Positions 12,342-64,000 of a DNA stretch of 64,000 nt are shown here, in pieces (positions within the stretch are counted from its first letter, which is position 1; each line of letters starts with the position of its first letter). Position numbers and translations under genes: made by a program. The stretch covers positions 3,782,001 through 3,846,000 of the forward strand of contig NZ_CP162495.1 in assembly GCF_040939125.1 (NCBI RefSeq). The letters are read 5' to 3'. Under the pieces are notes generated by a model that searched no databases, had not been told where the DNA came from, and saw nothing but the letters and a program-made list of their open reading frames with translations. The DNA is from Clostridium sp. BJN0013 (GTDB lineage: Bacteria > Bacillota > Clostridia > Clostridiales > Clostridiaceae).

Positions 12342-12623
12342 TACTGCAGCAGTGAATATCAGAAATTTTTAAGGGAAAATAAAATAATATGCAGTATGAG
12401 CCGCAAAGGTAACTGTTATGATAATGCATGTGCTAAAACATTCTTCAGCACCATAAAGTGCGAACTGCTCTACCAGAGGGAATATAAAACACGGGAAGAG
12501 GCAAGGCGTGATATATTCTGGTATATTGAAATATATTACAATAACCAGAGGAGAAACCAGGCAATTGGCTATAAGGTACCATCTCAGTTCAGAAAAGAAT
12601 TTAATATTTTAATGGCATCATAG
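12342..12623 (+). pseudogene. IS3-family OrfB, 3' exon
   Basis: This continues the OrfB reading frame directly after the intron: YCSSEYQKFLRENK, then the catalytic-Glu region (MSRKGNCYDNACAKTFFSTI, KCELLYQREYKTREEA) and the C-terminal YIEIYYNNQRRNQAIGY. The ATG at 12396 is internal. With the 5' exon (9684-10219) it forms a standard IS3 OrfB of about 275 aa, apart from the one-base lesion upstream of the intron. Confidence 0.85.
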
Positions 12624-12726
12624 TTGATTTTAGGGAAAATACTATAGTCAATAATAACAATAGTAATTATGCGATATTGAGAGAATTTCTAACTATAAAG
12701 TGTCCACTTTTTCGAGAAAAGCTCAT

Positions 12727-13005
12727 ACCTCCTCAATAGTATCCAATGGAGTATTAGTAGCATCTTTAATTTGCATTAAGCGACGAGATATTTTGCGCTC
12801 AATTTGCTCCAACTCTCTCTTTGTTTGAACAATTTTAATCTGCTATCTTTCCAATATTTCAACTAGAGTGTCTATTTTACAATAGTACTTTATTGAATTC
12901 AATCATTCAAACTGTGGAGTTAATAATAACGGTAGTTGGTTTGCTTATCTGTATATTGGCGTTTCAAGACACTAATTTCATCATAATATCTAAGTGTTAC
13001 TTAAA
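12727..13005 (-). pseudogene. MerR-family regulator, N-terminal half (split by IS3)
   Basis: Translating the minus strand gives a MerR winged-helix segment (VTLRYYDEISVLKRQYTDKQ, then NYRYY), after stops a helix (KIDTLVEILER), and the dimerisation coiled coil (QIKIVQTKRELEQIERKISR, then NTPLDTIEEV). The last residues join naturally to the effector half on the far side of IS3 no. 1 (8839-9298). At least two internal stops and a frameshift are present and the first residues of the HTH are missing, so the gene was decaying independently of the insertion. Confidence 0.65.
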
Positions 13006-13085
13006 GTGGACCCTTTGTCAAGACAATTTTTTAATATATTTATAGTTAGCTCAATAAACAGAAATCTAATAAAATATATGGATAT

Positions 13086-14520
13086 CTAACCTACGGACAG
13101 CTAATAACCATATAAATGGGAATTAAAATTTGTATAGAAATATTCTGAAAATAATAAAAAGCACCAATTCATAGTATAAAATTGATTTGCAGCACAATTT
13201 TACTAGAAAAGGTGGCTTATTATGATCAATGATCAAGAATATATTACTACAGAATTAAAAAAAATACTAGAAAAAATGATAATTTTATCATCATACCGTT
13301 TAAATAACTTAATAGCTATAGTTGTAGGAATAATAGTTTCACAGTCAGTTATATTATCCAAAATATCTCAAGAGCTGAAGGATTCCTATTCTTCAGGTAC
13401 AGAAGAAAGTAAAATTAAAAGATTGAGAAGATTTTTAACTAACAAGGCTATTAATTGTGAGAAAATATATGAATTCTTCGCATATAGGTTACTACAAAAG
13501 TATAAAAGTCATTCAAAGAAAATATATATAATTTTTGATCACACAACTATTATAGATAAATTTGTTATATTACAGTTTTCTTTAAAAGTGGGAAGAAGGG
13601 CAGTTCCCCTGTGGTATAAGATGTTCTTATATAAAGATGAGGGAAGTAAAGATTTCAAGTATATTAAACAAGGACTTAATTTTATACATAAAATAGTAGT
13701 TCCCTATAATTTTGATGTTACAATTTTAGCAGACAGGGGATTTAAAAGTGTCGATTTGTTTAAGTTTATAGATAAGACTTTAAAATTCAAGTATTGTATC
13801 AGGTGTACAAAAAATTTAAAAATATCAATATGCGGTAAACCAAATATAAAAAAGCTGGGAAATATAATACCTTTAAAGGGAAAGACAAGACACTTTTACA
13901 ATGTAAAATTAACATCTAAAAAATATATATGCAATCTGGCAGTCTGCAGGGCAGAAAGTTCTGATGATACCTGGTTCATAGCAAATAATTTAGAACAGAC
14001 CTTTTCAATTAGAGAATATAAAAAAAGATTTGATATAGAAGAAATGTTTAAAGATTTTAAATCTGGTGGGTTCAATTTAGAAGGTACCTGGACACATAAT
14101 ATCCAGTATGCAAGAACCTTATATTTATGCATTTGTATAGCTTACTGCTGGATGATAACCCTTGGAACATCTTGTACAAAAGATAAGAAAAATAAACTTA
14201 TTGGGGCTACAAAAACATTGAGAGACAAACAGGTAAGAATCTACAGCTTATTTAGGGCTGGAGTTAAATGGTTCAAAAGATGTTATTATTCTTTAAGAAA
14301 TACCTATTATTTAAAAATTGCTTTTACATTATATGAATATTAGTTCCTTTTATTTACATTGACATAAAACACTGTTATAAGTATAAATTTATACTTACAT
14401 TTTAATCAATTTATTCAATAATAATCAATTAGGAATATGATTAAATCCTTGAGTATAAACATCAACATCAATCATTATACTTTAATGGAATTTTATATAA
14501 ATTTACTGTCCGTAGGTCAG
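13086..14520 (+). mobile_element. IS4-family element with matched ends
   Basis: 15-bp terminal inverted repeats: CTAACCTACGGACAG (13086-13100) and CTGTCCGTAGGTCAG (14506-14520), one mismatch. Length 1,435 bp. One complete transposase lies inside. No clear target duplication was seen. The element is close to the broken MerR gene but does not interrupt a recognisable frame. Confidence 0.85.
13222..14343 (+). CDS. IS4-family transposase
   Basis: 373 aa, intact. DDE motifs: Asp in IYIIFDHTTI, Asp in VTILADRGFKS, and the YREK-type signature REYKKRFDIEEMFKDFKSGG with Glu. The start is supported by AAAAGGTGGCTTATT upstream. Complete motifs and conserved ends suggest that this copy could still be mobile. 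Confidence 0.88.
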   Translation: MINDQEYITTELKKILEKMIILSSYRLNNLIAIVVGIIVSQSVILSKISQELKDSYSSGTEESKIKRLRRFLTNKAINCEKIYEFFAYRLLQKYKSHSKKIYIIFDHTTIIDKFVILQFSLKVGRRAVPLWYKMFLYKDEGSKDFKYIKQGLNFIHKIVVPYNFDVTILADRGFKSVDLFKFIDKTLKFKYCIRCTKNLKISICGKPNIKKLGNIIPLKGKTRHFYNVKLTSKKYICNLAVCRAESSDDTWFIANNLEQTFSIREYKKRFDIEEMFKDFKSGGFNLEGTWTHNIQYARTLYLCICIAYCWMITLGTSCTKDKKNKLIGATKTLRDKQVRIYSLFRAGVKWFKRCYYSLRNTYYLKIAFTLYEY

Positions 14521-14529
14521 ACCATAAAC

Positions 14530-14827
14530 CCAAATCAACTAATTCTTTTTGTCCAAATTTTAATTTAATATTAATTATACTCAAGCATTACATCACATAT
14601 ATACCTGTTCTTTTGTTGCAATCTAAAAACGCATGATTCTTCATTATATTAAAACATATATTAGCATATTTAAATTCAATAGTTGGATATAATTCTTCTC
14701 CATAAAATGTAGCCTTAGAATTTTCTATTCATGATTTCAAAAGTTCCATATCTTTAAGCCCCTTCAAACCACCTGTAATATCTATCATCTTATCATGCAA
14801 TTTAATATATATTTTACTGAGATACAT
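14530..14827 (-). pseudogene. doc: Doc/Fic-type toxin relic
   Basis: Minus-strand translation gives MYLSKIYIKLHDKMIDITGG, then KATFYGEELYPTIEFKYANI and the Fic-type core KNHAFLDCNKRTGIYVM, matching the H-x-F-x-[DN]-x-N-K-R motif. A stop interrupts it after MELLKS, another follows the core, and the usual DGNKR Gly is Cys. Doc toxins phosphorylate EF-Tu in intact modules. This one is dead. The start overlaps the end of the upstream antitoxin relic, as in phd-doc operons. Confidence 0.65.
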
Positions 14828-14828
14828 T

Positions 14829-15051
14829 TTATTTATCTGCTAACTCCTTAAATACTTCTATATTTTCTATTAAAATTCTATCGGGAATTTTATCAAGTAT
14901 TTGTTCGTGAGATACAGCTTCTTTGGCAAATTCTTCAAAATTCAAAAATACATAATTACAGATTTATTCTCATCAACTATCTTAGAGCTACTTTAGAAAA
15001 ATTCTGATTAACTTCTGATATTGAAACTATCTTCTTAGTATTTACTAACAT
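14829..15051 (-). pseudogene. phd: Phd/YefM-type antitoxin relic
   Basis: Starts at the ATG at 15051 after GGAGGGTTTTTA: MLVNTKKIVSISEVNQNFSK, the N-terminal DNA-binding pattern of Phd/YefM antitoxins, then a frame loss with KIVDENKSVI readable in another frame. The C-terminal toxin-binding tail (IPDRILIENIEVFKELADK) is in frame at the end. It sits directly upstream of the Doc relic, which supports both calls. Confidence 0.6.
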
Positions 15052-15190
15052 TAAAAACCCTCCTTAACATTGTGGTACTTGAGTATTCATTTTAAAATAA
15101 TCCTCCTCTTAATTTTAATTCTTCAATTAATTTCTTTGTAGATATATCTTTTTAATTCATCCTTCTCACCTCACCCTCCTACGGCAGTCT

Positions 15191-15301
15191 TCATAAATTT
15201 TTTATATCATAAAATGAGAAGTATTCGCTTCTCATTGCTTTATTTTTATTTAATTTTTTGTCTTGAGTAAGCTTTTCTTTCAGAATTTCTCTTATCTTCA
15301 T
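15191..15301 (-). CDS. Possible 36-aa helical peptide
   Basis: An ATG with AGGAAAGTGATAGGT upstream opens 36 codons of a Lys/Glu-rich, likely helical peptide (MKIREILKEKLTQDKKLNKN ...). A hairpin (GAGAAG ... CTTCTC, about 15216-15234) lies inside the frame, so part of the stretch could instead be a terminator. Just downstream another fragment (DISTKKLIEELKLRGGLF) carries an early stop. Function unknown; possibly remnants of small phage- or plasmid-type genes. Confidence 0.3.
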   Translation of the reverse strand: MKIREILKEKLTQDKKLNKNKAMRSEYFSFYDIKNL

Positions 15302-15384: not shown

Positions 15385-16670
15385 AACTTTTAGAACAAAA
15401 ATAAGCACCCTAAATGATGGATGCCTACTTTGTGCCTAAAAAGTTTATTTTTTATGATTATGTGGTATCAACATAATCATATTGTATATAAAGATTGTTA
15501 TGTAAAAATATTTCCCTCGTTAAGTCTTTGTTAAAAAGGCACCTGACTAAAAACTAAATGTCTCTCTCCGCACAAAATAAGTACCCTAAATAATGGGTAC
15601 TCATCTTTTTATCTAAATTTTAATAATTTAGGATATTTTTATTATGTACCAATTATTGCAGTAATATGTATTAAATATCAAATAATGTTTGTATTTTAAA
15701 TACTTTAAACATAAAAATAAGTACCGGGGTTAAGTGTAGCACTTATTCTTTATATTGAATTTAGAGTTAGATTTAAATAGTGGTTGCATTTAAATTTAAC
15801 GTGCCCTGCAACCACAGACACAGCCTTACATATCTTCAATGCCTGGGATATTATATACTTTACTATGTATTATATTTTATATTCATTAATTGTTATAATA
15901 TTATTTATACAGGTTAAATAAATATTTACACATATTAAAAGACACCTGAACTTAATCAGGTACCTCTAAAATTATATACAATTTTAACTATACTTTAAAT
16001 ACTTTATACATAGAGAAATAAGTAGCAATTTATTATTTTAGGTACTTATTTTCTGTAATAGTTCGCAATGTGTGTGATAAAAAATTTAGAACTTGGAGAT
16101 TTTTATTAAATTGTATTGCACTTATAATAATATACAATTTAGCATATATACAATCGTATTAATTTAAAAGAACTTTATGAATAAAGATAATTTTTTTATA
16201 GCAAAAGGCACCTAGATTTCCTTAATTTTGAGTTTAGTAGTTTATCAGCTTCCTTCATTTGATTTATATAATTGTCAATATTTCTAATTAAATGACCATG
16301 TCTTATATCAAACATTGGAGCAACTTTTCTACTGCTTAAAGTAATTTTTTTCAGGAATTAAAGCATTTAAATTTAGCATTTATTTAAAGTAAGTAAAATA
16401 TTTTTAGGTAGAAAAAAAGGAAAATATACCAGCAATTACCTTGCTAATAGGCCTTTTATTTATACTAAAGACTTTTTATAATTAATATTGAGAAAACAAA
16501 CTTTTTTACGTTATAACAGGTAAAATTATTTTTATATAATTTTTCCATATAACAACACTTTTAAATGGTTTAACTTTCTTTCAGAGCTATATTGCTTATT
16601 CTGTGATCTAATATAGGGTATTTGTCATTTATTTCTTTATTATTGTGTTAAATGATGGGTACTTATTTTT
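15385..16670. repeat. Family of degenerate hairpin repeats in a gene-free stretch
   Basis: At least five units share AAATAAGTACC ... GGTACTTATTTT, for example near 15387, 15568, 15712, 16013 and 16640. In the 15568 unit GTACCC and GGGTAC pair and are followed by a T-rich run. A second motif, AAAAGGCACCT, recurs near 15535, 15943 and 16202. Apart from a Rha-like remnant no gene is recognisable between about 15.3 and 16.75 kb. They may be terminators of lost small genes or a small repetitive element. Confidence 0.45.
16205..16385 (-). pseudogene. Phage Rha-family regulator fragment
   Basis: Minus-strand translation reads ITLSSRKVAPMFDIRHGHLI, then RNIDNYINQMKEADKLLNSK. This is the N-terminal pattern of Rha-type phage regulatory proteins (SR-VAxxxxxxHxxLxRxI). 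No start is visible and the frame is cut after LRKSRCL. It suggests a decayed prophage or integrative element next to the tRNA array. Confidence 0.45.
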
Positions 16671-53375: not shown

Positions 53376-54539
53376 TTAATCATCTTTTTTTAACGTTGAT
53401 AACATACTTAAAATTATAAATAAAATTGACCATAAAATCATAATTATTATAGAAGAAATTGTATTAATATACACAGCTCCTGTATTTTTTATAAAATCTC
53501 TATTAATAATGCTAGGAAAATTATATAAATTCATAAAAAATCCTGATAATATTGGTGCAATATTATTAAATGAAGAAAATTCAAAAATAATAAAAACATT
53601 TAGAAAATATACGATTATTGGTATAATCATTGACGCTATATTATTTCTTAATAATGATGATATAAAAATGCAAAAACTAGCTGAAACAATAATAAATAGA
53701 ATTTGAAGAATCCAATGTTGAAGCAAAAAGCTATAAAACGGAATAATAGTAGATGAATTCGGAATTAAAGATATAAACTTATGAAGTGTACTATTTAACA
53801 TATTACTAGATACAAATTTAGGTCCAATGATTATTGGAAATTTTAAACTACTAAATCCAAATGCTATTCCACTTGCAAGATAAACAATTATATCAAAGAT
53901 TGTTACAATTACAGTTATAGATAAAATTCCAGTAAAGAATTTACCTAATATTAGCTGTATTTTGCTTATAGGACGGGTTAATAAAAATCTTATAGTTTTT
54001 GATGAATATTCATCAGAAACACTATCTGAAATCATGAAAACTACAATAATAAAGATCAATATATTTAATATATTAGAATAATCACTAAAAAATACCAATT
54101 GAGTTTTGGAAAATCCATTCATTGGTTTAATACTATTTTTTATAAGGTACTCATTTCGTGCTATGGTTTCATTTATTTGTTCCTTTTCAATATCACTTAG
54201 ATTATTTATATTCTGATTTTGTAATTGCTTTGTTATTTTTACAAGGTCTGTTTTCCAATGAGTAGAATTATTTTGTAGTTCAGAATACTGTTGCATGCTT
54301 TTTTCAATAGAATTTATTTCTGTTTTTATCTTATTTTTTTCATCAATGGATTTACTTGATGCTTCTTGAATTTTTAAACTTTTAATATATCGTTTTGATC
54401 TAGCAATACCAGCTTCGCCCCTTTGCGAATTGAAAGAAATCATTGTTAATATTACTATGATTATTAAAACTATACAACAACCTAATACTTTTTTACGGTA
54501 ATACATTTTTATTAATTCATTTTTTATTATTTGAGTCAT
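53376..54539 (-). CDS. ABC-2 type transporter permease
   Basis: 387 aa. One N-terminal helix (KKVLGCCIVLIIIVILTMIS), an extracytosolic helical domain (about 45-145, Lys/Gln/Glu-rich) and five more helices from residue about 150. The segment VSDEYSSKTIRFLLTRPISK is the cytosolic coupling motif of bacitracin/lantibiotic-immunity type permeases. It overlaps the ATPase gene upstream by 23 bp (translational coupling). It likely exports or expels a peptide or antibiotic from the membrane. Confidence 0.85.
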   Translation of the reverse strand: MTQIIKNELIKMYYRKKVLGCCIVLIIIVILTMISFNSQRGEAGIARSKRYIKSLKIQEASSKSIDEKNKIKTEINSIEKSMQQYSELQNNSTHWKTDLVKITKQLQNQNINNLSDIEKEQINETIARNEYLIKNSIKPMNGFSKTQLVFFSDYSNILNILIFIIVVFMISDSVSDEYSSKTIRFLLTRPISKIQLILGKFFTGILSITVIVTIFDIIVYLASGIAFGFSSLKFPIIIGPKFVSSNMLNSTLHKFISLIPNSSTIIPFYSFLLQHWILQILFIIVSASFCIFISSLLRNNIASMIIPIIVYFLNVFIIFEFSSFNNIAPILSGFFMNLYNFPSIINRDFIKNTGAVYINTISSIIIMILWSILFIILSMLSTLKKDD

Positions 54540-55434
54540 TTCTAATAACCTCCAAATATCTTTTTTCTAAGGTTTTATTTTTAGGTATAATTTTATCAAA
54601 TACAAGATTATTACTTATAAGTAATTTAGTTAATTTGTAATAACAATTTTTATTAATGGTAATATCTACATAATTTTTATTAATTGTAATTTCTTTTATA
54701 AAATCAAATTTATTTATTATGTTATTATATTTTTCTGATTCAGTAGTTTCAATTTGGAAAGTTTCATAATCGTTGTCAATATTTTTAATATTTTCAATTG
54801 ATTTTACCTCACCATTATTTATAAATACGATTTTATTACACAATACTTCTATTTCACTCAGTATATGTGATGATATAAGAATAGAAATATTATTTTTTTT
54901 GGCACTATTTTTTAAGAGTTCTCTAAATTCAATTATTCCATTTGCATCAAGACCATTTGTTGGTTCATCTAACACCCAAAGCTTTTTTTCACCCATTATT
55001 ACTTGAGCTAGTCCTAATCTTTGTTTCATACCTAATGAATATGTTTTAAATTTGTCATACATCCTATCCTTTAGACCAGTTATCTCTAGAGCTTTAAGTA
55101 TATCATCATCACTAATATTTTTATCTAATCTTGCTAACTGTCTTAAATTTTCAATTCCACTTAAATAAGTATACATTTCAGGAGTTTCAACAATAGTACC
55201 TATATTTGAAATATACTTTTTCCTTTCTTTCTTTATAGTGTTACTACAAACATATATGTTTCCGCTATCTGGAGTTAAAAGCCCAACAATCATTTTTATT
55301 ATGGTTGTTTTTCCAGATCCATTAGGTCCAAGTAGTCCACAAATTTCTCCTTCTTTTACATTTAAACTTATGTTGTTAATAATTTTTTTATTATTAATAT
55401 TTTTAGACACGTTTTCAATTTTTAATACTTCCAT
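54517..55434 (-). CDS. BcrA-type ABC transporter ATP-binding protein
   Basis: 305 aa. Walker A LLGPNGSGKTTIIKMIV, signature YSLGMKQRLGLAQVIMG, Walker B KLWVLDEPTNGLD, H-loop SSHILSEIE. The C-terminal about 90 residues are the extension typical of BcrA/immunity-type ATPases. It pairs with the overlapping permease at 53376-54539. Such pairs give self-immunity to bacteriocins or resistance to cell-wall antibiotics. It lies on the same strand as the ABC exporter and Cys-rich peptide further on, separated by transposon debris. Confidence 0.9.
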   Translation of the reverse strand: MEVLKIENVSKNINNKKIINNISLNVKEGEICGLLGPNGSGKTTIIKMIVGLLTPDSGNIYVCSNTIKKERKKYISNIGTIVETPEMYTYLSGIENLRQLARLDKNISDDDILKALEITGLKDRMYDKFKTYSLGMKQRLGLAQVIMGEKKLWVLDEPTNGLDANGIIEFRELLKNSAKKNNISILISSHILSEIEVLCNKIVFINNGEVKSIENIKNIDNDYETFQIETTESEKYNNIINKFDFIKEITINKNYVDITINKNCYYKLTKLLISNNLVFDKIIPKNKTLEKRYLEVIRNDSNNKK

Positions 55435-55527
55435 TTTTTATCTTTAGTGAGAGAGTGTATAGTAAGTACCAAACTCCCACTAAATCCGCCTTTCTTTCTT
55501 ACTATTCACCTTTTAGTGTCTAATAAG

Positions 55528-55959
55528 TTATTTTATATTTCTAATTCTATCTAAATTTTCTCTTAACCTTTCATTTTCATCTTTAAGTTCTTCCATTTCA
55601 ATTAATTTAATAATTAAGTTTTGTTTATCTTCTTTAAGTTTCTTAATCTCTTCATATAGTTGTTTTATCTTATCGTCTTTAGCCTTTATTTTATCTTTAG
55701 GTGTAGCAACTATACTATCATTAGAAACACCTTTTTTAATGGCTCTAAGACTTAATATTCGTTCCTTAAGAATGTCATTATTCTATAGAGTAGCCTTAGA
55801 TACTCCTGCTTCCTCGGCTACTACTTTAAAATTAATTTTCTTAGTTTTAGAACACTTTAATTTATCTATTACTTTATTAATCTTTTCGATAGTCTCTTGG
55901 TTCTTCTTTTCCGCAAATTCCTTTAAACCTTCTGTATTTCTATTACGCTTCTTTACCAT
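55528..55959 (-). pseudogene. Tn554-type TnpC (DUF6262), nonsense codon
   Basis: The minus-strand frame begins MVKKRNRNTEGLKEFAEKKN and continues with the HTH segment VVAEEAGVSKATL, then an amber codon where family members have an aromatic residue (ATLYxN), then ERILSLRAIKKGVSND and a coiled coil (DKIKQLYEEIKKLKEDKQNL) to the stop at 55528. TnpC is the small DNA-binding helper of the Tn554 transposition system. Apart from the single stop the frame is intact. Confidence 0.65.
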
Positions 55960-56056
55960 TCATTTGCACCTCCAAACTATCTACAAGTGGTTTCAAATAT
56001 TTCCATTTAACATATTGTCTTTCCCAAGACCTTTGTTGACCTAATTCTTTGGTACT
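55943..56056 (-). pseudogene. Tn554-type TnpB, C-terminal fragment
   Basis: The end of a reading frame (GQQRSWERQYVKWKYLKPLV, then DSLEVQMNGKEA) overlaps the start of TnpC, the arrangement of tnpB-tnpC in Tn554-like elements. The rest of tnpB is cut off by the right end of the IS3 element. Confidence 0.5.
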
Positions 56057-56109
56057 ATGTCAAGAAAAAGCACAAATTAAAATGAGAAAATTCTAACAAG
56101 TCCTATATT

Positions 56110-56403
56110 TTAACTTGCAATTGATTCACTAAATTTTGCAGCCTTTTCATATGCTTTTTTAAACTCGTTTGGTGACATATAATTGCAATGGCTGTGAATT
56201 CTTATGGTATTATAAAATGTTTCAATATATTCAAATACAAGAATATATGCATGACGATAATTTTTAATTCTAAAGCGATTTATCCACTCACGTTTTATAA
56301 TTGCATGGAAGGATTCAATACATGCATTATCCCATGGATGTGCTTTTTTAGAATAACTAAGTACCATTTTTGAAGCAGCTTTTTTATATTCTTTGGATAC
56401 GTA
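56110..56403 (-). pseudogene. IS3-family OrfB, 3' exon (element no. 2)
   Basis: It resumes with Tyr immediately after the intron: YVSKEYKKAASKMVLSYSKK, then AHPWDNACIESFHAIIKREW with the catalytic Glu, and YIETFYNTIRIHSHCNYMSP. Together with 58526-59143 it reconstitutes a complete OrfB without other lesions, so splicing of the intron would restore the transposase. Confidence 0.85.
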
Positions 56404-58525
56404 ATCGATTAAGAAAAAGAGATTGCTCCCTTTCCCTCATCTAAGAACCGTACGTGAGAGTTTCCCGCTCATACGGCTCAAGCATTTCTTCACCCTTTCA
56501 GGCAGCAACAAATGTATGCAGTTTTATCTTTCTTTTATCAAAATAGTCCTTGTCTAAGAAAGGTGTTTTTATGATCTGCAATTTTGGATATCTGACGATT
56601 TTAATCCGTCTCAAATTAATTAGACTGTACTCGTCCGTCTTGAAAAGCCATCTTTTCCAACCTTTTTCATGCCAGTATTTATTTAGTCTCCACCATTTGT
56701 TCTTATTTGGGTGTCTATGTTTTGCCCATTGCTGTAGTAAGTGATAAAGGGTGTTGTTAATATTTGAAAAGGCTTTACTAGCAACCACGTGTTTGTGATA
56801 ATTTGTCCAACCTCTTATGACTTGATTAAGCCTTCTTATTAAGTCAGATTGGGTGCTAGCTTTCCCCTCCTTAAGGATTATTGTGGAACATCTCCTAATT
56901 ATGTTTTTAATAGAACTTTTAGAAGGTTTAACTATTAATTTCCCACTGTATTTCTTAAATGTCCAGCCAAGAAAGTCAAACCCTTTGTCGATATGTGTGA
57001 TTGTAGTCTTTTCTTCTGATAGTGTTAGACCTCTTGATTGGAGGAATTGACTAACAGTAGTTTTAAGTTCTTCAGCAATTTCTTTTGAGTTTGCAGTAAT
57101 AACAAAATCATCAGCATACCGAATCAAGTTCACTTTAGTTTTGGCTCTGTAATGATTTTCTATTTTACCTTTTGAATTTCTATGATATTTATCTTGAATC
57201 ACTTTTTCGAGTCCATCTAATGTCATATTTGCATATATACTTGAGATTGCACCGCCTTGTGGCGACCCTGTTTCCGTTGGGAACAGCTTTTCTTCATATA
57301 TATATCCCGATTTTAGGAACTGCTTCATAATAATTTTATCCATTGGTATATTGTTTTGTAACCATTCATGGTTAATGTTATCAAAGCAACCTTTAATATC
57401 GCCTTCAAGTATCCATGTCGGAGAACACTTTCTAGCTAATACACAAAATATCTGCTCACAGGCATCTTTTGCACTTCGTCCACGGCGGAATCCAAAGGAA
57501 ATGGAATCACCTTTTGTTTCTGCGATTGGCTCAAGCGCTAGTGCATATAATGTTTGCATTGCTCTATCATACATTGTTGGTATACCTAATGGACGTTTCT
57601 GTTTTTTACCTTTCTTTTCGATGTATACTCGTCTTAAAGGTTTTGCTTTATAGTTTTTGTCAGTAAGTGAAAGCACAGCTTTCATCTTCGAAGCAGAGGT
57701 AGACCATAGTTTTTTGTCTACTCCAGACGTATTCTTCCCTTTATTTGTTGTTACTTTTCTTACAGCATAAGCCTTAGCTGAAAAAGAGTGGGTTAATAAG
57801 TATTGTAATCTTTTGGCTTTATTATTGTCCCCTTTTTTTGTTGCCTTAGCGATTCGGGTTTGTAGTCTATTAACATCGAATTCAACTTGTTTCCAGTCAA
57901 TTGTTTCCCATTGAAATTCAAGTGATTTCGTGTCTTTTAGTCTCTCGGTTTTATCCGTCGTTGAATTACTAAAATTCATAAATATATACTCCTTTCCTGC
58001 TAAGAAATACCATAGGATAAGTCTGCACTCTTTCGAATTAGGGCAAATTTTGAACCCTTATCTGTTTTCATTACAAAATCAGCATTCGCTTTTTATCCTT
58101 TTCTTCTGCCCTCTATGTCATTTCGCCCCTTACGGTTAGATACCTCTCGATGGAGGAACATATAGGGTTTACCAAGTTCCACATAATACATAATTGTAAA
58201 TGCCTTAGGAGTCATCTTTAAACCGGGAGTTCTTTATCCATTCGCATTGGTTTAACAGTTGGCCTTTGCTCGACTCCTTACCATTTTGGTCAAAGCGTTT
58301 CAGCCTATTTCGCTTTCTCCAGCGTAACGATTCCTACAATGATTCACTTTACGTTCTCCATAGCATTCTTACTCTAGCAGTTGTCCCAGCTTAGGCTACT
58401 CGAACTTCCACATTGTCTCGTGAGCTTTCTAACCCAAACGTTACCATTCACGCTAGTCACGATAGAGTTACCCCGAATGGATGGGGCAGTCTTACGACAA
58501 TGTATTACGCGACTTCTTGTCGCAC
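56404..58525 (-). mobile_element. Group II intron copy 2 with maturase ORF
   Basis: Starts GTGCGAC (complement of 58519-58525) and ends AATCGAT (complement of 56404-56410), 2,122 nt, the same length as copy 1, and no difference was seen in the stretches compared. Domain V at 56445-56479. The exon junction reads HSDRGSQ before and YVSKEYK after, the same codon position of OrfB as copy 1. Confidence 0.93.
56498..57979 (-). CDS. ltrA: Group II intron reverse transcriptase/maturase, copy 2
   Basis: 493 aa, identical in sequence to the protein at 10766-12247: RT motifs including YADD, maturase domain X, no HNH domain. Identity with the first copy although the host IS3 elements differ shows recent intron spread. 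The ribosome binding site GGAAAGGAG lies upstream of the ATG. Confidence 0.93.
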   Translation of the reverse strand: MNFSNSTTDKTERLKDTKSLEFQWETIDWKQVEFDVNRLQTRIAKATKKGDNNKAKRLQYLLTHSFSAKAYAVRKVTTNKGKNTSGVDKKLWSTSASKMKAVLSLTDKNYKAKPLRRVYIEKKGKKQKRPLGIPTMYDRAMQTLYALALEPIAETKGDSISFGFRRGRSAKDACEQIFCVLARKCSPTWILEGDIKGCFDNINHEWLQNNIPMDKIIMKQFLKSGYIYEEKLFPTETGSPQGGAISSIYANMTLDGLEKVIQDKYHRNSKGKIENHYRAKTKVNLIRYADDFVITANSKEIAEELKTTVSQFLQSRGLTLSEEKTTITHIDKGFDFLGWTFKKYSGKLIVKPSKSSIKNIIRRCSTIILKEGKASTQSDLIRRLNQVIRGWTNYHKHVVASKAFSNINNTLYHLLQQWAKHRHPNKNKWWRLNKYWHEKGWKRWLFKTDEYSLINLRRIKIVRYPKLQIIKTPFLDKDYFDKRKIKLHTFVAA

Positions 58526-59143
58526 CTGACTGCCTCTGTCACTATGTATAATAAGGGGATTAAGCAACTTCCTATTTTGTTTAGCTTTATTAATTGTGTC
58601 AATAACACAGGAAACAGCTAATGTTTCTGCAAGAGTCCAAGCTATAATTTTTCGAGAGTATAAGTCCATAATACTTGTAAGATATACAAAACCTGTGTTG
58701 GTCCAAAGATATGTGATGTCTGTACACCATACTGCATTTGGTGTAGATGGGTTAAACTTCTCATTTAGGATGTTTTCAAGTTTACTGCTGAAATCAGAAT
58801 CTTTTGTAGTAACGGTATATGGCTTTACATATTGAGCTTTAATACCAAGCTCCTTCATGTATTTTCCAACGGTGCGTTCTGATATTTTTTCGCCAGTTTT
58901 TTGTATTTCTTTTGTAATTTTAGGAGCACCATAATTTTGATGTAATTTATCATAAATTTCCCTAATTTCTTCTTTTACAGCTTTCTTTCTCTTTTGCCTG
59001 CTGGATGGCAGGCGATGCAGCCATGAATTATACCCTGAACGTGAAACGCCTAATATACGAAGCATTCCGCTGATAGAAGCCCGGCGTTTCCCTTGAAGTT
59101 CTTCATGTTTATTCAAGACTTCAAGATAGATTGCTTCTGTCAT
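58526..59143 (-). pseudogene. IS3-family OrfB, 5' exon (element no. 2)
   Basis: Starts MTEAIYLEVLNKHEELQGKR and has the HTH_21 motif (HQNYGAPKITKEIQ), first Asp in AVWCTDITYLW, second Asp in LIIHSDRGSQ, where the intron begins. The open frame runs a few codons into intron sequence (to 58505). The start overlaps the orfA stop by 4 bp; a slippery A AAA AAA G run in orfA allows the usual OrfAB fusion. Confidence 0.87.
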
Positions 59144-59439
59144 TTTCCCAAAATGCCTATGGCTTTTTTTAATACATCAAGAGCATCCTTTGTGTTACGA
59201 AGTTCACGCTTTAATCGTACAATCTCTTTTTGTTCATCGCTGGAATAATTACCAGAACCACGAACTTCGATACCATTTTCACTTTTAGAATCCCTAATCC
59301 ATTTTGATAAAGTACTGGCACCTATATCAAGGTTTAGGGCACAACCTCTTATTCCAAGTTCTTTATGATCCATATAGTATCTTACGGAATCTTCTTTAAA
59401 CTGTTTGTCATGTTGTTTTCTCATGATAAGTTCCCCCAT
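59140..59439 (-). CDS. IS3-family transposase OrfA (element no. 2)
   Basis: 99 aa (a start six codons in, MRKQHDKQFKEDSVRYYMDH, is also possible). HTH: GCALNLDIGASTLSKWIRDS; coiled coil: DEQKEIVRLKRELRNTKDAL. Binds the IS ends and is fused to OrfB by frameshifting at the A7 run near 59166. Confidence 0.87.
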   Translation of the reverse strand: MGELIMRKQHDKQFKEDSVRYYMDHKELGIRGCALNLDIGASTLSKWIRDSKSENGIEVRGSGNYSSDEQKEIVRLKRELRNTKDALDVLKKAIGILGK

Positions 59440-59489
59440 TTCTTATATTCATTTTAACCTCTATCGGGAACTTTCTCAATTTATCTTGT

Positions 59490-59800
59490 ACTATTTTTAT
59501 TCTAGCATCAGTTTTTTAACTATCCTCATCTTATTATCCAATACAACAACAATATTTTTTCCTTTGTGCTTTACTATACTCAATTCCACTTCTATTTTTC
59601 TCCATACTTACTTTACATATCTAATAAGTTTATATTACTATCATAATACAATTTAACATAACCATCAATAATAACATATTCCTTATCAATATCTATAACA
59701 AATATAGTACTCATTCATTTTTATATTCTTTCTATCTATACTCTCTAATAGCACTATATCACTAATATTTTTTATAATTATATTAGTATTTACTATCTAT
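59490..59800 (-). pseudogene. Possible Tn554-type TnpA N-terminus and other debris
   Basis: Next to the IS3 end a short frame reads VKHKGKNIVVVLDNKMRIVK, which resembles the N-terminus of Tn554-like integrases, then stops. Further out a 33-codon frame begins MSTIFVIDIDKEYVIIDGYV with a weakly similar pattern. Both are too short to be sure. With the TnpB/TnpC pieces on the other side they would make a tnpABC module gutted by IS3. Confidence 0.3.
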
Positions 59801-59822
59801 ACTATAATCACTAAAGATAACA

Positions 59823-61586
59823 TTATTTTAACACCACATTTCTATTTATATATTTATTCCAATGTTCTCCATATAATTTTTTATACTCATCACAATATTG
59901 AATTAATTCATAATGACTTCCATTGCCAACTAACTTGCCATTACTCATAACAAATATATTATGAACTTGTAATAATGTTGTAAGCCTATGTGCAATTACA
60001 ATTATAGTTTTATTTTTTGACAATAAATTTAATGTATTTAATATATATTCTTCCGATTCACCATCTAAGCCTGATGTTATTTCATCAAATAAAAAGATTT
60101 TTCTATTACTTATTATAGCTCTTGCAATTGCTAATTTTTGTTTTTGACCACCAGATAAACTCATTGCACCGTCACCAATACGGGTTAAATACTTTTGTGG
60201 TAAACTTTCTATATAATTATCAATATGTGCTGTTTCACATGCTTTTTTGACATCTTCAATTTTTACATTATGATTTAATATTGCTAAGTTTTCAAATATA
60301 CTTCCACTAAAAATAAATGGATCCTGTTGAATATATACTATATTATTTCTTAATGAGTTTAATGATATATCGTTAATGTTGTACCCATCAATTATAATGT
60401 TACCATTGTTTACTTCATATAATCTGCAAATTAAGTTTAAAAGTGTACTTTTTCCACATCCATTTAATCCAACAATTCCATATAAAGAATTTGGCTTTAT
60501 TTTTAAAGAAAAATTATTTAATAAATAATTATTACTATCATCATATTTGAAATTTATATTGTTTATAATAATGCTTCCTCTTTTAAATAATATATTATCC
60601 ATTTTTTCAACAGGTTGTTCATAGCTTAGAGAATTTATATATTCAACTCTTTCCATAGAAACTTTTAATGTTTTCATACTTATATGAAAATCTGAGAATT
60701 TATAAATTGAATTTACAAATTTACCTAAATAGCTGTTAAAAGCAACGTAAGATCCAACTGTTAGTTTATTACCAATTATAAGGATAGATGCATAAAAAAG
60801 TATCATCCATTGAGAAATTGATGCAATAAACTGATTAACAAGATTATAGATTAATGTTATCATTTTAATAATAAATGTATTTTTTATTGATTCATTTAAG
60901 AATGATGAATATCTATTCATAACATTTTGTAAAATATTCAAACACTTTATTTCCTTATAAGAATTTAATACTTCGTTTAAATAAGCAAAATATGAATCAG
61001 CAATTTTTTTGCCTTTTCGTGTATTAGTATCGATACTCTTTCCCAAAAAAAACATGAATAGAAAATTAATTGGGATTATCATTATTGCTATTAATGATAA
61101 TTTCAATGATATTTTTAGTATAAAGTATAAGGAAACAACTATATCTATAATATATATAATAAAATCTGACAAATCATTTATAATAAATTTACAAATAACC
61201 GATGCATCTCCTTCAATCCTAGAAACATATTCACCAATTTTTAGTTTTTGATACTCAGACATAGTTGTACTCATAATTTTATTAAACAATTTAGTTTTTA
61301 TATCATATGTAATTTTATTATTTAACTTAGCAGAAAGATACGTTTCAATTGAACTTAAAATTGAATTTACAAAAAAAATTATTATCATAAATATTATTAT
61401 TTTTTTTATGTACACTAGATTTTTACAAATAACATAATCTACACTTTTACCAAATAAATATAGTGGTAATAAAGTTATTACATCAGATATAATAGCTATA
61501 GTATATAAAATTAACAACTGAAACTTATATTTACTAGAATACATGTAGCTATGTTTTATTGAAATAATTAAATTGTATAAAAACAT
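59823..61586 (-). CDS. ABC exporter (fused membrane and ATPase domains)
   Basis: 587 aa. The type I ABC transmembrane domain covers about 15-310 with six helices. The ATPase domain has Walker A IVGLNGCGKSTLLNLI, Q-loop VYIQQDPFIFSG, signature MSLSGGQKQKLAIARAI, Walker B KIFLFDEITSGLDGES and H-loop IVIAHRLTTL. There is no N-terminal C39 peptidase, so any peptide leader would need a separate protease. This architecture is typical of bacteriocin/RiPP or lipid exporters. It lies about 1.2 kb downstream of the Cys-rich peptide gene on the same strand, with an IS630 relic between. Ribosome binding site AAAGGAATTATT. Confidence 0.85.
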   Translation of the reverse strand: MFLYNLIISIKHSYMYSSKYKFQLLILYTIAIISDVITLLPLYLFGKSVDYVICKNLVYIKKIIIFMIIIFFVNSILSSIETYLSAKLNNKITYDIKTKLFNKIMSTTMSEYQKLKIGEYVSRIEGDASVICKFIINDLSDFIIYIIDIVVSLYFILKISLKLSLIAIMIIPINFLFMFFLGKSIDTNTRKGKKIADSYFAYLNEVLNSYKEIKCLNILQNVMNRYSSFLNESIKNTFIIKMITLIYNLVNQFIASISQWMILFYASILIIGNKLTVGSYVAFNSYLGKFVNSIYKFSDFHISMKTLKVSMERVEYINSLSYEQPVEKMDNILFKRGSIIINNINFKYDDSNNYLLNNFSLKIKPNSLYGIVGLNGCGKSTLLNLICRLYEVNNGNIIIDGYNINDISLNSLRNNIVYIQQDPFIFSGSIFENLAILNHNVKIEDVKKACETAHIDNYIESLPQKYLTRIGDGAMSLSGGQKQKLAIARAIISNRKIFLFDEITSGLDGESEEYILNTLNLLSKNKTIIVIAHRLTTLLQVHNIFVMSNGKLVGNGSHYELIQYCDEYKKLYGEHWNKYINRNVVLK

Positions 61587-61779
61587 TATTAATAATTCCT
61601 TTCAAAATATTAAATTAACGTGAGTTCGATGAAAAACCTTAGTATTTCCAGCACTTGAAAGACTGTAGACTATACTATTCTTATAATTATGTAAACAATA
61701 GTTTTATATTTTTGTTTTTTATATAAATCTCATTATTAGGTAGCCACTAAAAATTCTCCAAAATTCACACACTAAAAAA

Positions 61780-62400
61780 ATACAGTTTTGGAGATGATAT
61801 TTACTATGAACAAAAAGCTTGAAGTTAATATTTAACATAGTTCTTATGCTATGTTAAAACAATTATATAAAACTGAAAAGGATGTAAGAATGAAAATTAG
61901 ACTACTTGTAATTCTATACTTTTTTGAAGGCTACTCAAATATAAAAGTAACTAAACTGGTTCATCAATCTAGCTCAACGTTAGAAGATACCTCTATGGGT
62001 ATAATAAATTGGGATCAGTTGGAACTGTTAACCCTAAAACTGGTGATTTATCACAACAGTTGAGTGACAAAGGAAATACCGAAAACTTCAAGTATTTTTT
62101 TTATACAGTATCTAAAGATTATTCCAATAAAAAAGTGATAATCATTGCTGACAATATAAAGCACCATCATTTTAAAAGTATAAACAAATACTTAGAAAAA
62201 TTAAAGAACATTGAATTTTTCTACTTACCCCTATACTGCTCTGAACTAAATGCTGTAGAACATTTGTAAAAAAATATACGTGCTAATATTACACATAATA
62301 CACTTTTTAGTGCTTTTACAGAATTAATACAGCAGGTGAATTCTTATTTTTATTGCCTGAAAGAGGATTAAAGAGTAAGTTACATAAATTGTGTGCATAT
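61780..62400 (+). pseudogene. IS630-family transposase, decayed
   Basis: A hairpin CTCCAAAA ... TTTTGGAG (about 61759-61796) precedes an ATG at 61806. Then come the HTH part (MKIRLLVILYFFEGYSNIKV), a frameshifted middle (SVGTVNPKTGDLSQQLSDKG) and the DDE_3 end (KVIIIADNIKHHHFKSINKY, FFYLPLYCSELNAVEHL with Asp and Glu), followed by stops. At least two stops or frameshifts separate the parts. About 340 bp after it (62400-62740) show no recognisable gene. Confidence 0.7.
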
Positions 62401-62758
62401 ATATGCTAACCTTCCCATTTGGAAGTTAGCTATTTGTTATTTTAAATTATATGGCATACTTTAAAATAATGTAATCTTATAGCATTGATATTACACAGTT
62501 CATCACATAAACTTCCGTCAAACTCACATTAAATTAACATATTAGGAGATGTTATGTATTGGGGAGCTAATTTTTTATCATATAATATCAAATATATATA
62601 TTAACTCTATAATAGTACAAAAGTGATTGAATAATTTTAAACTTGTAAAATACTCAATTAAAAATGCACTATTATAGATTGACTCTATTAGTTATTGGTT
62701 TACTCCCAATAAGTAGTTAGCATAATATATTACAAATTTTTTATTTATAAATTACTAA

Positions 62759-62920
62759 TTACCACTTAAGTGCTCGACATCCTTCACATGGTCCCAAACA
62801 GTGACCTTCACATGAAGTACATGAGTTTGAGCAACCTATAACACAACCACTACCACAAAAAATCAAAGGATTAATATCCTGTGATTTGTTTTGTAAATCC
62901 TTTTTTACATCTAATTTCAT
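62759..62920 (-). CDS. 8-cysteine peptide, RiPP-precursor-like
   Basis: 53 aa. A polar Lys/Asp/Gln leader (MKLDVKKDLQNKSQDINPLI, 1-20) is followed by a compact Cys/Gly/Ser-rich core (21-53) with eight cysteines at 22, 26, 30, 34, 37, 41, 45 and 48, spaced x3-x3-x3-x2-x3-x3-x2, and the tail RALKW. The ribosome binding site AAAGGAGAAATTTT is ideal. The leader/core layout and regular Cys spacing match precursors of radical-SAM-modified peptides (sactipeptide/ranthipeptide type), but no maturase is in the window. A small metal-binding protein is the alternative. An ABC exporter and immunity-type ABC pair lie downstream on the same strand. Confidence 0.6.
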   Translation of the reverse strand: MKLDVKKDLQNKSQDINPLIFCGSGCVIGCSNSCTSCEGHCLGPCEGCRALKW

Positions 62921-62951: not shown

Positions 62952-62999
62952 GGCGTTTGTGAAACGCCGCAATCCGCATAAATGCGGGATATTTTTTGT
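62952..62999. other. Tandem GC-rich hairpins at an element border
   Basis: GGCGTTT-GTG-AAACGCC (about 62953-62969) and CCGCAT-AA-ATGCGG (about 62974-62987) followed by TATTTTTT. It lies between the Cys-rich peptide gene (-) and a transposase gene (+). It may be the left end of that element, or a terminator stopping plus-strand transcription. Confidence 0.5.
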
Positions 63000-63090
63000 T
63001 ACAAAATAAAATAGCTCCTCACTGATTTATGGTAAAATTGAATTGACAAGAAACAAAATCACCATTTCCTCGGAAAGGAGTTACATATAC

Positions 63091-64000
63091 ATGATATCAT
63101 ATAAACAGCTTTCTTTGGCAGATGTTTATTCTGATTGCAAAGAAAAATTTGAAAGCAACAAATGTCAGTTTCTTTCTTTACTTGAAAATAGTATTGATCT
63201 TGATGATTTGGTTCCTGTTTCTTTCATAAATCATTTTTACGCTTCCACCAGAAGGCCTCGTAAATATAAGCTTTATGCCATGATTCGTGCTTTGATTTTG
63301 CAACATATTTTTTCTATCCCTATAGACTCTCTTTTAATCATTTTTCTTAAGTATTCTCAAGAGTTAAGGGATTTCTGCGGTTTTCTTAAAGTTCCTGATG
63401 CTTCTAAGTTTACTCGTTTTAAACAAGACTTCCTTTTGGACTTACAATACATGTTCGATTATCTGGTTGATATCACCGAACCGATATGCCAACAAATTGA
63501 TGCAAAACTTGCTTCTATGACTATTTTTAATACTTCTGGTATTGAAGCTTTCGTCACTGAAAATAATCCTAAATACGCTAACCGCATCATAAAACAACTT
63601 AAAGCTTTTAAGAAGGTACATGGTTTGGATGATTCTTATGATCCTTATAAAGCTGCCTATGGTTCTATGCCTTCACATGCTGCAGCTAACCTAGCCATTC
63701 AGCAAATGTACATTAACGGGTATTTCTGCTATTCTTTTAATTTGGTATTATAACCAACGGTCTTGGCATTGTAAGAAACATTTCGTTTTACAATAAAAAT
63801 TTTCTTGAGACTCATCCAGATATTGTTATTGAGAAAAAATCTGATTCACCTGATGAGGATAAGTCTCTTGCTGATGCTAAAGCATTTATACCTGTTCTTA
63901 AGGATTTTCTTGAAAAACATCCTTTGATAAATCCAAAAACCTTTTTAGGTGATGCAGCCTTTGACAGCATTGAAATTTATCGCTACCTTTTGCAGGAATT
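63091..64000 (+). pseudogene. DUF772-type (IS1182-like) transposase, frameshifted and cut by window end
   Basis: Starts MISYKQLSLADVYSDCKEKF after GGAAAGGAGTTACAT. The DUF772-type N-terminus is RPRKYKLYAMIRALILQHIF. The first catalytic segment reads TIFNTSGIEAF where Asp is expected in place of Asn. The frame ends at 63753 (SFNLVL), but the protein continues in another frame (GIITNGLGIVRNISFYNKNF, then FLGDAAFDSIEIYRYLLQE) to the window edge; one base was lost near 63738. It looks inactive. Confidence 0.72.

What the first reader, a model, noticed from the sequence alone, without database searches (positions are those of the whole stretch)
53376..62920. Fragmented Cys-rich peptide locus: 8-Cys precursor-like ORF, ABC exporter and immunity-type ABC pair
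Seen: a 53-aa ORF with a polar leader and eight cysteines in a regular x3-x3-x3-x2-x3-x3-x2 pattern, an ABC exporter without a peptidase domain, and a BcrA-type ATPase/permease pair. All are on the minus strand, interspersed with IS630, IS3-intron and Tn554-type debris. Known: such peptides with exporter and immunity ABC genes form RiPP/bacteriocin clusters, often with radical-SAM maturases. Inference: the maturase was lost or lies elsewhere, or the peptide is an orphan that uses a maturase encoded in trans.
Basis: partly seen in the sequence, partly recalled or inferred. Interest (0 to 1): 0.75.

Follow-up and report, generated by a model that had tools for sequence, protein, structure and literature searches.

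The report
Mobile-element-split radical-SAM peptide operon
The small cysteine-rich peptide is one of two neighbouring precursors of a known but biochemically unexplored family of enzyme-modified bacterial peptides, and its supposedly missing modifying enzyme lies intact just beyond the edge of the window.

Summary
In detail: a 53-aa ORF with 8 regularly spaced Cys, an ABC exporter without peptidase domain and a BcrAB-type pair, all minus strand, among mobile-element debris. The inference of a lost or trans-acting maturase is wrong: same strand, 2.4 kb upstream of the peptide and 1.3 kb past the window end, lie a 729-aa radical-SAM maturase (TIGR04115 537 bits, cut-off 350; TIGR04119 254/150), its TIGR04116 partner (80/50) and a second precursor (63 aa, 11 Cys). 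A decayed IS sits between the precursors and IS630 debris before the exporter; the five RiPP ORFs stay open. It is a split member of the CXXX-repeat radical-SAM RiPP family, without the subtilisin-like protease and TIGR04118 leader that go together in related clusters; neither precursor reaches an NCBIfam precursor cut-off. The maturase is a tandem duplicate: an rSAM-SPASM half plus a half without CX3CX2C but with a second 7-Cys SPASM-like set. Likely chemistry: several Cys cross-links, then export; untested. BcrAB linkage is only proximity. New member of a known kind. In passing: viral contigs carry related maturases near proteins with 33-82 cysteines.

The parts
62759..62920 (-). precursor 2: 53-aa peptide, 8 Cys (the finding)
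   Evidence: Weak NCBIfam matches only, all below cut-off: the CXXX-repeat target families TIGR04118/04114/04117 (12.7-13.3 bits), ranked after an unrelated Fe-S protein model, ndhI (E 0.047). RBS-like AAAGGAG upstream.
59823..61586 (-). ABC exporter, 587 aa, no peptidase domain
   Evidence: PF00664 + PF00005. 31% identical to the exporter of the C. zeae CXXX cluster. phmmer bits to exporters of 8 CXXX clusters: 145.5-321.1, of which 6 of 8 exceed the 237 bits of its best paralogue in the own genome. Its place in the tree is unresolved.
62952..64000 (+). decayed IS (DUF772 transposase, IS1182-like; family name recalled) between precursors 1 and 2; continues about 0.7 kb past the window end. 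Beyond it, outside the window and so not listed as parts: precursor 1, TIGR04116 partner, maturase, regulator (coordinates in the full report)
   Evidence: About 85% identical to two other copies in the genome that hold a 506-aa ORF; here the largest pieces are 236, 100 and 50 aa. Left end judged by eye.
61851..62269 (+). IS630-type transposase debris between precursor 2 and exporter
   Evidence: PF13358 DDE_3 58.7 bits on an 86-aa piece; the frame of the first base has 9 stops across the stretch.
54517..55434 (-). BcrA-type ABC ATPase (membership doubtful)
   Evidence: TIGR03740 201.9 bits, under cut-off 309.75.
53376..54539 (-). ABC-2 permease of the pair (membership doubtful)
   Evidence: PF12679 78.2 bits; relatives stand elsewhere in the genus in genomes without TIGR04116.

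Best explanation
The 53-aa ORF is the second of two tandem precursors of a CXXX-repeat radical-SAM RiPP operon, ordered maturase - TIGR04116 partner - precursor 1 - precursor 2 - ABC exporter, that mobile elements have pried apart. Shown by sequence: the genes, their family assignments, the intact Fe-S cysteines and the open frames. Inferred: the MKLD-type leader is recognised, perhaps by the TIGR04116 partner because the maturase has no room for an N-terminal recognition domain (its CX3CX2C begins at residue 36). The N-terminal rSAM-SPASM half abstracts hydrogens and joins Cys sulfurs to nearby residues of the C-X3 repeats as thioethers, as ranthipeptide maturases do. The C-terminal half, a degenerate copy of the first that kept a second 7-Cys SPASM-like set, assists, for example in electron relay or in positioning a long repetitive substrate. 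The cross-linked peptide is exported by the 587-aa exporter, and the leader, if removed, is removed by a protease not encoded here. Most likely an accessory secreted peptide used against or between bacteria.
For: Maturase TIGR04115 536.9/350 and TIGR04119 253.7/150, partner TIGR04116 79.7/50. Same order and strand. Cys pattern in 2 of 349 ORFs, 0 of 18,144 in shuffles. Among 14 other loci with this maturase, an exporter gene lies beside it in 9. 18 invariant Cys columns in the 14 full-length maturases aligned (own included), covering CX3CX2C and two 7-Cys sets; the halves align over 283 columns, hhalign probability 97.3. The best NCBIfam match after the two CXXX models is PapB, a ranthipeptide maturase (226.1 bits, below its cut-off 340); the only solved match at E 1e-5 is 5wgg, which I recall as CteB, a ranthipeptide maturase. 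PapB joins Cys to Asp/Glu in CX3D/E motifs (PMC9413430, abstract and passages). Sparse and mobile: TIGR04116 in 1 of 13 genus genomes, TIGR04119 over cut-off in 6 of 391 class genomes, own included, a relative on a plasmid predicted conjugative. The IS between the precursors has decayed while the RiPP ORFs are open.
Against: No precursor model of NCBIfam reaches its cut-off: precursor 2 has 12.7-13.3 bits to three CXXX target models and its top match is an unrelated Fe-S model; precursor 1 has no match. The leader similarity of the two precursors is modest (434 of 20,000 shuffles reach it). The exporter does not group with the other clusters' exporters with support, and 2 of 8 of those score lower against it than its best own-genome paralogue. 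Most C-X3 units have no acidic residue, so the PapB reaction cannot be copied literally. The operon is cut by two elements, so precursor 2 and the exporter may have lost the operon promoter; the promoter scan was uninformative. No close relative was found to measure selection. No structure could be predicted.
Confidence: 0.8

Rival explanations
1. The peptide is an orphan whose maturase was lost or acts in trans.
For: The peptide is cut off from its neighbours by IS elements.
Against: An intact cognate maturase, partner and second precursor lie upstream on the same strand.
Confidence: 0.02
2. A metallothionein-like metal-binding peptide: free thiols bind metal and the maturase acts only on precursor 1.
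For: High Cys content; spacing includes CX2C.
Against: Similar Cys period and leader start to precursor 1, with exporter and maturase in the neighbourhood. No metal-homeostasis gene was recognised among the genes annotated here; this was not searched for systematically.
Confidence: 0.08
3. A dying cluster: the ORFs are still open but the split operon no longer makes product. (Not exclusive of the best explanation.)
For: Two insertions split the operon; no dedicated protease was found; the own genome's only match to the C. zeae S8 protease at E 0.001 has 29.7 bits and lies elsewhere.
Against: The five RiPP ORFs and all 18 invariant maturase Cys are intact although the IS between the precursors has decayed to pieces.
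Confidence: 0.25
4. The product is a bacteriocin and the BcrAB pair is its immunity transporter.
For: The ATPase is nearest to the lantibiotic-protection family; the pair lies 4.4 kb downstream of the exporter on the same strand; the cluster is sparse and mobile.
Against: Below the family cut-off. Full-length permease relatives at 39-41% in 5 of 12 other genus genomes, beside an apparent two-component system in 3 of 3 inspected, in genomes without TIGR04116. In the fetched stretches of the other loci (4-20 kb) phmmer found no match to the permease, and ATPase matches only in L085 (121 bits, 4.5 kb from the maturase) and L094 (80.6 bits, beside a distant radical-SAM gene).
Confidence: 0.25

Closest known systems
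CXXX-repeat radical-SAM RiPP systems (NCBIfam TIGR04115/04119 maturase, TIGR04116 partner, TIGR04118/04117/04114 targets)
   Same: Maturase and partner above cut-off; small Cys-rich peptides at a mostly four-residue Cys period next to them; ABC exporter nearby.
   Different: Precursors below the cut-off of the NCBIfam target models; two tandem precursors; no S8 protease found; operon split by IS elements.
C. zeae cluster (L046/L084), with G251, G342, L085, L092, L093
   Same: Maturase 44-47% identical to ours; partner and Cys-rich peptide in all 6; exporter in 5 of these 6 (not found in G342).
   Different: All 6 have a subtilisin-like protease gene, and 5 of 6 precursors are over the TIGR04118 cut-off (the sixth 33.4 of 35).
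Anaerococcus prevotii plasmid pAPRE01 and G168
   Same: Same fused maturase (43%), exporter, no S8 protease found.
   Different: The peptide before the maturase has only 4 Cys and a basic tail; on pAPRE01 the partner ORF is only 41 aa.
Ranthipeptide maturases PapB and CteB
   Same: rSAM-SPASM architecture; nearest characterised family model and nearest solved chain (that 5wgg is CteB is recalled).
   Different: Below the PapB cut-off; ours carries a second, degenerate half; acceptor residues must differ.

Membership tests
CXXX-repeat radical-SAM RiPP system | Maturase above TIGR04115 cut-off | tested here: met
   536.9 bits, cut-off 350
CXXX-repeat radical-SAM RiPP system | Maturase above TIGR04119 cut-off | tested here: met
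   253.7 bits, cut-off 150
CXXX-repeat radical-SAM RiPP system | Partner above TIGR04116 cut-off | tested here: met
   79.7 bits, cut-off 50
CXXX-repeat radical-SAM RiPP system | Neighbouring small peptide with Cys at a four-residue period | tested here: met
   Spacing 3 in 5 of 7 (precursor 2) and 8 of 10 (precursor 1) intervals; 80 of 103 in the 11 precursors counted, these two included
CXXX-repeat radical-SAM RiPP system | Precursor over the cut-off of TIGR04114, TIGR04117 or TIGR04118 | tested here: not met
   Precursor 2: 13.3/20, 12.7/50, 12.8/35; precursor 1: no match. The peptide-model claim fails; membership rests on the maturase and partner.
CXXX-repeat radical-SAM RiPP system | Intact CX3CX2C and SPASM cysteines | tested here: met
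   C36, C40, C43 and 7 SPASM Cys present
Ranthipeptide | Thioether from Cys sulfur to a non-alpha carbon | not testable with these tools
   Needs mass spectrometry or NMR; the PapB model NF047865 is below cut-off (226.1/340)
QHNDH-like export with subtilisin-like protease | QhpE-like S8 protease beside the maturase | tested here: not met
   None in the locus; best in the own genome 29.7 bits, elsewhere. The C. zeae protease itself is below the QhpE cut-off (126.4/165).
Lantibiotic-protection ABC (TIGR03740) | Score over the family cut-off | tested here: not met
   201.9/309.75
Bacteriocin | Antibacterial activity of the product | not testable with these tools
   No assay

The most novel reading that the evidence does not exclude
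The CXXX-repeat maturase makes a general 'Cys-ladder' modification: runs of C-X2/3 units turned into a cross-linked rod. The same enzyme family is used for small secreted peptides (ABC-exported in clostridia and Bacteroidales, apparently Tat-targeted in planctomycetes and alphaproteobacteria) and, in a single-half form, for large Cys-rich proteins encoded in phages, beside tail genes in the two loci whose neighbours were annotated. The window's operon would be one small instance of a modification shared between peptides and virion parts.
Probability: 0.25. Interest if true: 0.75.

Novelty: new member of a known kind. Interest (0 to 1): 0.4.

Why it matters
It corrects a plausible but wrong inference caused by a window edge and shows that a known RiPP family has a sub-type that current precursor models miss: no protease gene and different leaders. 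The two tandem precursors beside one maturase, and the tandem-SPASM architecture, make leader recognition and the role of the degenerate half directly testable. On what this family makes I found nothing in the held library: searches by TIGR numbers and 'CXXX repeat' gave zero papers; broader searches gave listings, of which five papers were opened at passages only, and the words TIGR04115/TIGR041/TIGR04 or CXXX that I looked for in each had no occurrence.

Tried and rejected
Rejected: chance ORF; lost maturase. Tried without result: the peptide by sequence in 59 genomes found only itself. The exporter tree leaves ours unresolved: the CXXX exporters as a label need 2 changes against 7.2 in shuffles, but in only 1% of bootstrap trees are they one side of a branch. 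TIGR04116 against solved structures gave only weak, unconvincing matches (12 at E up to 1, best 0.0034, a eukaryotic SAM sensor). TIGR04116 against the phage small proteins: hhalign probability 6.7, not claimed. The promoter scan is no different from shuffles (77 against a mean of 72.3). Rfam found nothing at gathering score. Our maturase as a single query in viral contigs found no relative. Papers: PMC9413430, PMC8326336, PMC11002830, PMC10352776 and PMC9062424 were seen as passages through 'find' only, besides search listings; Haft and Basu 2011, which I recall as the source of these families, was not read.
Full report
WHAT IS THERE. The 53-aa ORF at 62759-62920(-) has eight Cys at spacings 3,3,3,2,3,3,2. 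In an 86-kb contiguous stretch (window plus the next 22 kb) 2 of 349 ORFs of 35-120 aa hold six or more Cys at spacing 2-3; in 60 dinucleotide-preserving shuffles 0 of 18,144 do. The second of the two is another precursor 1.8 kb upstream, outside the window. The exporter has the two ABC exporter domains and no peptidase domain.

THE MISSING MATURASE. The window is G000:C1:3782001-3846000. A search of 59 genomes with the family model TIGR04115 gave 3 over the cut-off: C. zeae (G023), a genus member (G011) and the own genome, just past the window end. Reading on gives, all on the minus strand: a 729-aa maturase, a 95-aa protein, a 63-aa Cys-rich peptide, an IS, then our 53-aa peptide. NCBIfam: maturase TIGR04115 536.9 bits (cut-off 350) and TIGR04119 253.7 (150); the 95-aa protein TIGR04116 79.7 (50). 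These are the radical-SAM maturase and partner of the 'CXXX-repeat' RiPP systems. The peptide itself had matched the target families of that system only weakly (TIGR04118 12.8 bits of 35, TIGR04114 13.3 of 20, TIGR04117 12.7 of 50), after an unrelated Fe-S model, ndhI, at E 0.047; precursor 1 matches none.

GENES OUTSIDE THE WINDOW (genome coordinates G000:C1; in brackets L043). Precursor 1, 63 aa, 11 Cys at spacings 1,3,3,3,3,3,3,3,2,3: 3846729-3846920(-) [10729-10920]. TIGR04116 partner, 95 aa: 3846964-3847251(-) [10964-11251]. Maturase, 729 aa: 3847276-3849465(-) [11276-13465]. Divergent regulator, 442 aa, with PF12844 HTH_19 and PF13424 TPR_12 over cut-off, its role in this system inferred: 3849942-3851270(+) [13942-15270]; it has no phmmer match in the other loci examined. 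The IS between the precursors ends at about 3846712.

HOW THE OPERON WAS SPLIT. The insertion between the two precursors is about 85% identical over 1.8 kb to two other copies in the same genome; those are 99.4% identical to each other and hold a 506-aa ORF, whereas here the transposase is in pieces. Its ends lie about 17 bases from the stop of precursor 1 and about 31 bases from the start of precursor 2, with similar AT-rich sequence on both sides (ends judged by eye). So the two precursors were tandem neighbours. IS630-type debris separates precursor 2 from the exporter. Despite this the five RiPP ORFs are open, and the maturase keeps all 18 Cys columns that are invariant in the 14 full-length maturases aligned, itself included. 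That suggests, but does not prove, that the genes are still used.

THE MATURASE. The 18 Cys are CX3CX2C (36, 40, 43), seven SPASM Cys (277-371), one at 418, and a second set of seven (589-672). Profile comparison of the two halves gives probability 97.3 and E 2.3e-11 for that single pair over 283 columns. The C-terminal half is therefore a degenerate copy that lost the SAM-cluster motif but kept a SPASM-like set. In L090 and L091 (alphaproteobacterial MAGs) what reads as the C-terminal half is a separate gene (phmmer match and by eye). The only solved match at E 1e-5 is 5wgg, recalled as CteB; the best family after the two CXXX models is PapB at 226.1 bits, below its cut-off 340. Both are ranthipeptide maturases, and PapB joins Cys to Asp or Glu in CX3D/E units (PMC9413430, abstract and passages). 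The repeats are rich in Gly at the second position after Cys (38 of 80 three-residue intervals in 11 precursors) and in Ser, Thr or Gly at the first and third, so acceptors other than Asp/Glu are expected. This part is inference.

RELATIVES. Apart from ours I examined 14 loci with this maturase: C. zeae L046, G251, G342, G168, G291, G088 (4-kb contig, partial gene), L085, L086, L087, L088 (5.8-kb contig), L089, L092, L093 and plasmid pAPRE01 of Anaerococcus prevotii. An exporter gene lies beside the maturase in 9 of 14 (not found in G342, L086-L089). An S8 protease gene lies beside it in 6 of 14 (C. zeae, G251, G342, L085, L092, L093); in the short contigs its absence says little. In those six, 5 precursors are over the TIGR04118 cut-off and the sixth has 33.4 of 35. 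Of the four peptides scanned from Firmicutes clusters without the protease (own two, G291, G168) 0 reach it, ours best at 12.8. So protease and leader type go together, and ours belongs to the type without. The own genome has no close S8 relative (29.7 bits elsewhere). In planctomycete and alphaproteobacterial MAGs the Cys-rich proteins begin with RR-containing signal-like stretches (Tat model TIGR01409 below its cut-off in the two scanned, 13.6 and 11.2 of 16.7), which suggests another export route.

THE EXPORTER. phmmer bits of our exporter to those of 8 CXXX clusters are 321, 316, 306, 302, 293, 262, 215 and 146; its best paralogue in the own genome has 237. A tree of 21 exporters leaves its place unresolved. 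Its assignment rests on position and strand.

DISTRIBUTION. TIGR04116 is in 1 of 13 genomes of the genus; TIGR04119 is over the cut-off in 6 of 391 genomes of the class, own included; the peptide itself in 1 of 59. A relative sits on a plasmid predicted conjugative. This is an accessory, mobile pattern, unlike a core function.

THE BCRAB PAIR. The permease has full-length relatives at 39-41% identity in 5 of the other 12 genus genomes (one with a stop inside) and a 136-residue piece in a sixth; in 3 of 3 inspected (G003, G004, G006) the pair lies beside a response regulator and a kinase-like gene (read from the ORFs by eye), and none of the 12 has TIGR04116. It is a general transporter type; its place 4.4 kb from the exporter is the only link.

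VERDICT. It is a new, IS-split member of the CXXX-repeat radical-SAM family, with two precursors that present models miss and no protease gene found. Chemistry and function are untested.

Noticed in passing
L045:8418-10873 (G011, same genus) and L113: A TIGR04115 maturase (414.9 bits, over cut-off; the N-terminal half only) directly before a 230-aa protein with 33 Cys in C-X2/3 repeats, inside a phage tail module: PHROGs gives a tail-collar fibre and a baseplate gene upstream; an amidase-like gene downstream is read by eye.
   Followed up: partly
L113-L124 (IMG/VR viral contigs): In 10 of 12 viral loci found with that maturase a Cys-rich ORF (33-82 Cys) lies in the same locus, next to or near the maturase (L120 and L122 have the same ORF coordinates and may be one phage); exceptions L121 (3.7-kb contig) and L124. 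Six of seven of these maturases scanned are over the TIGR04115 cut-off, L120 just under (342.2 of 350). Tail genes were confirmed by PHROGs in L113 and L117 only. Possibly a radical-SAM-modified virion protein; two paper searches found nothing.
   Followed up: partly
L120, L122, L123, L124: Maturase frames in these viral contigs are interrupted under the standard code; in L120, L123 and L124 a frame of over 430 residues opens if TAG is read as a residue, suggesting recoded phages (L122 has the same ORF coordinates as L120 and was not tested).
   Followed up: partly
L113, L114, L116, L117: A family of small proteins (130-174 aa, 23-33% identical to the first row) accompanies the phage maturase and Cys-rich gene; relation to TIGR04116 not shown.
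   Followed up: partly
L108 and L109 (pAPRE01, Anaerococcus prevotii): The plasmid's CXXX cluster lies next to a class III lanthionine synthetase gene, with another small Cys-containing peptide and a radical-SAM gene at 107 kb: a RiPP-rich plasmid predicted conjugative.
   Followed up: no
L043:17306-18430 and 15449-15772: Further transposases lie upstream of the maturase, beyond the HTH-TPR regulator; the region is dense in mobile elements.
   Followed up: no
window 56110-59439: A group II intron reverse transcriptase lies between two pieces of an IS3-type transposase on the same strand (the 58505-59143 piece read by eye).
   Followed up: no
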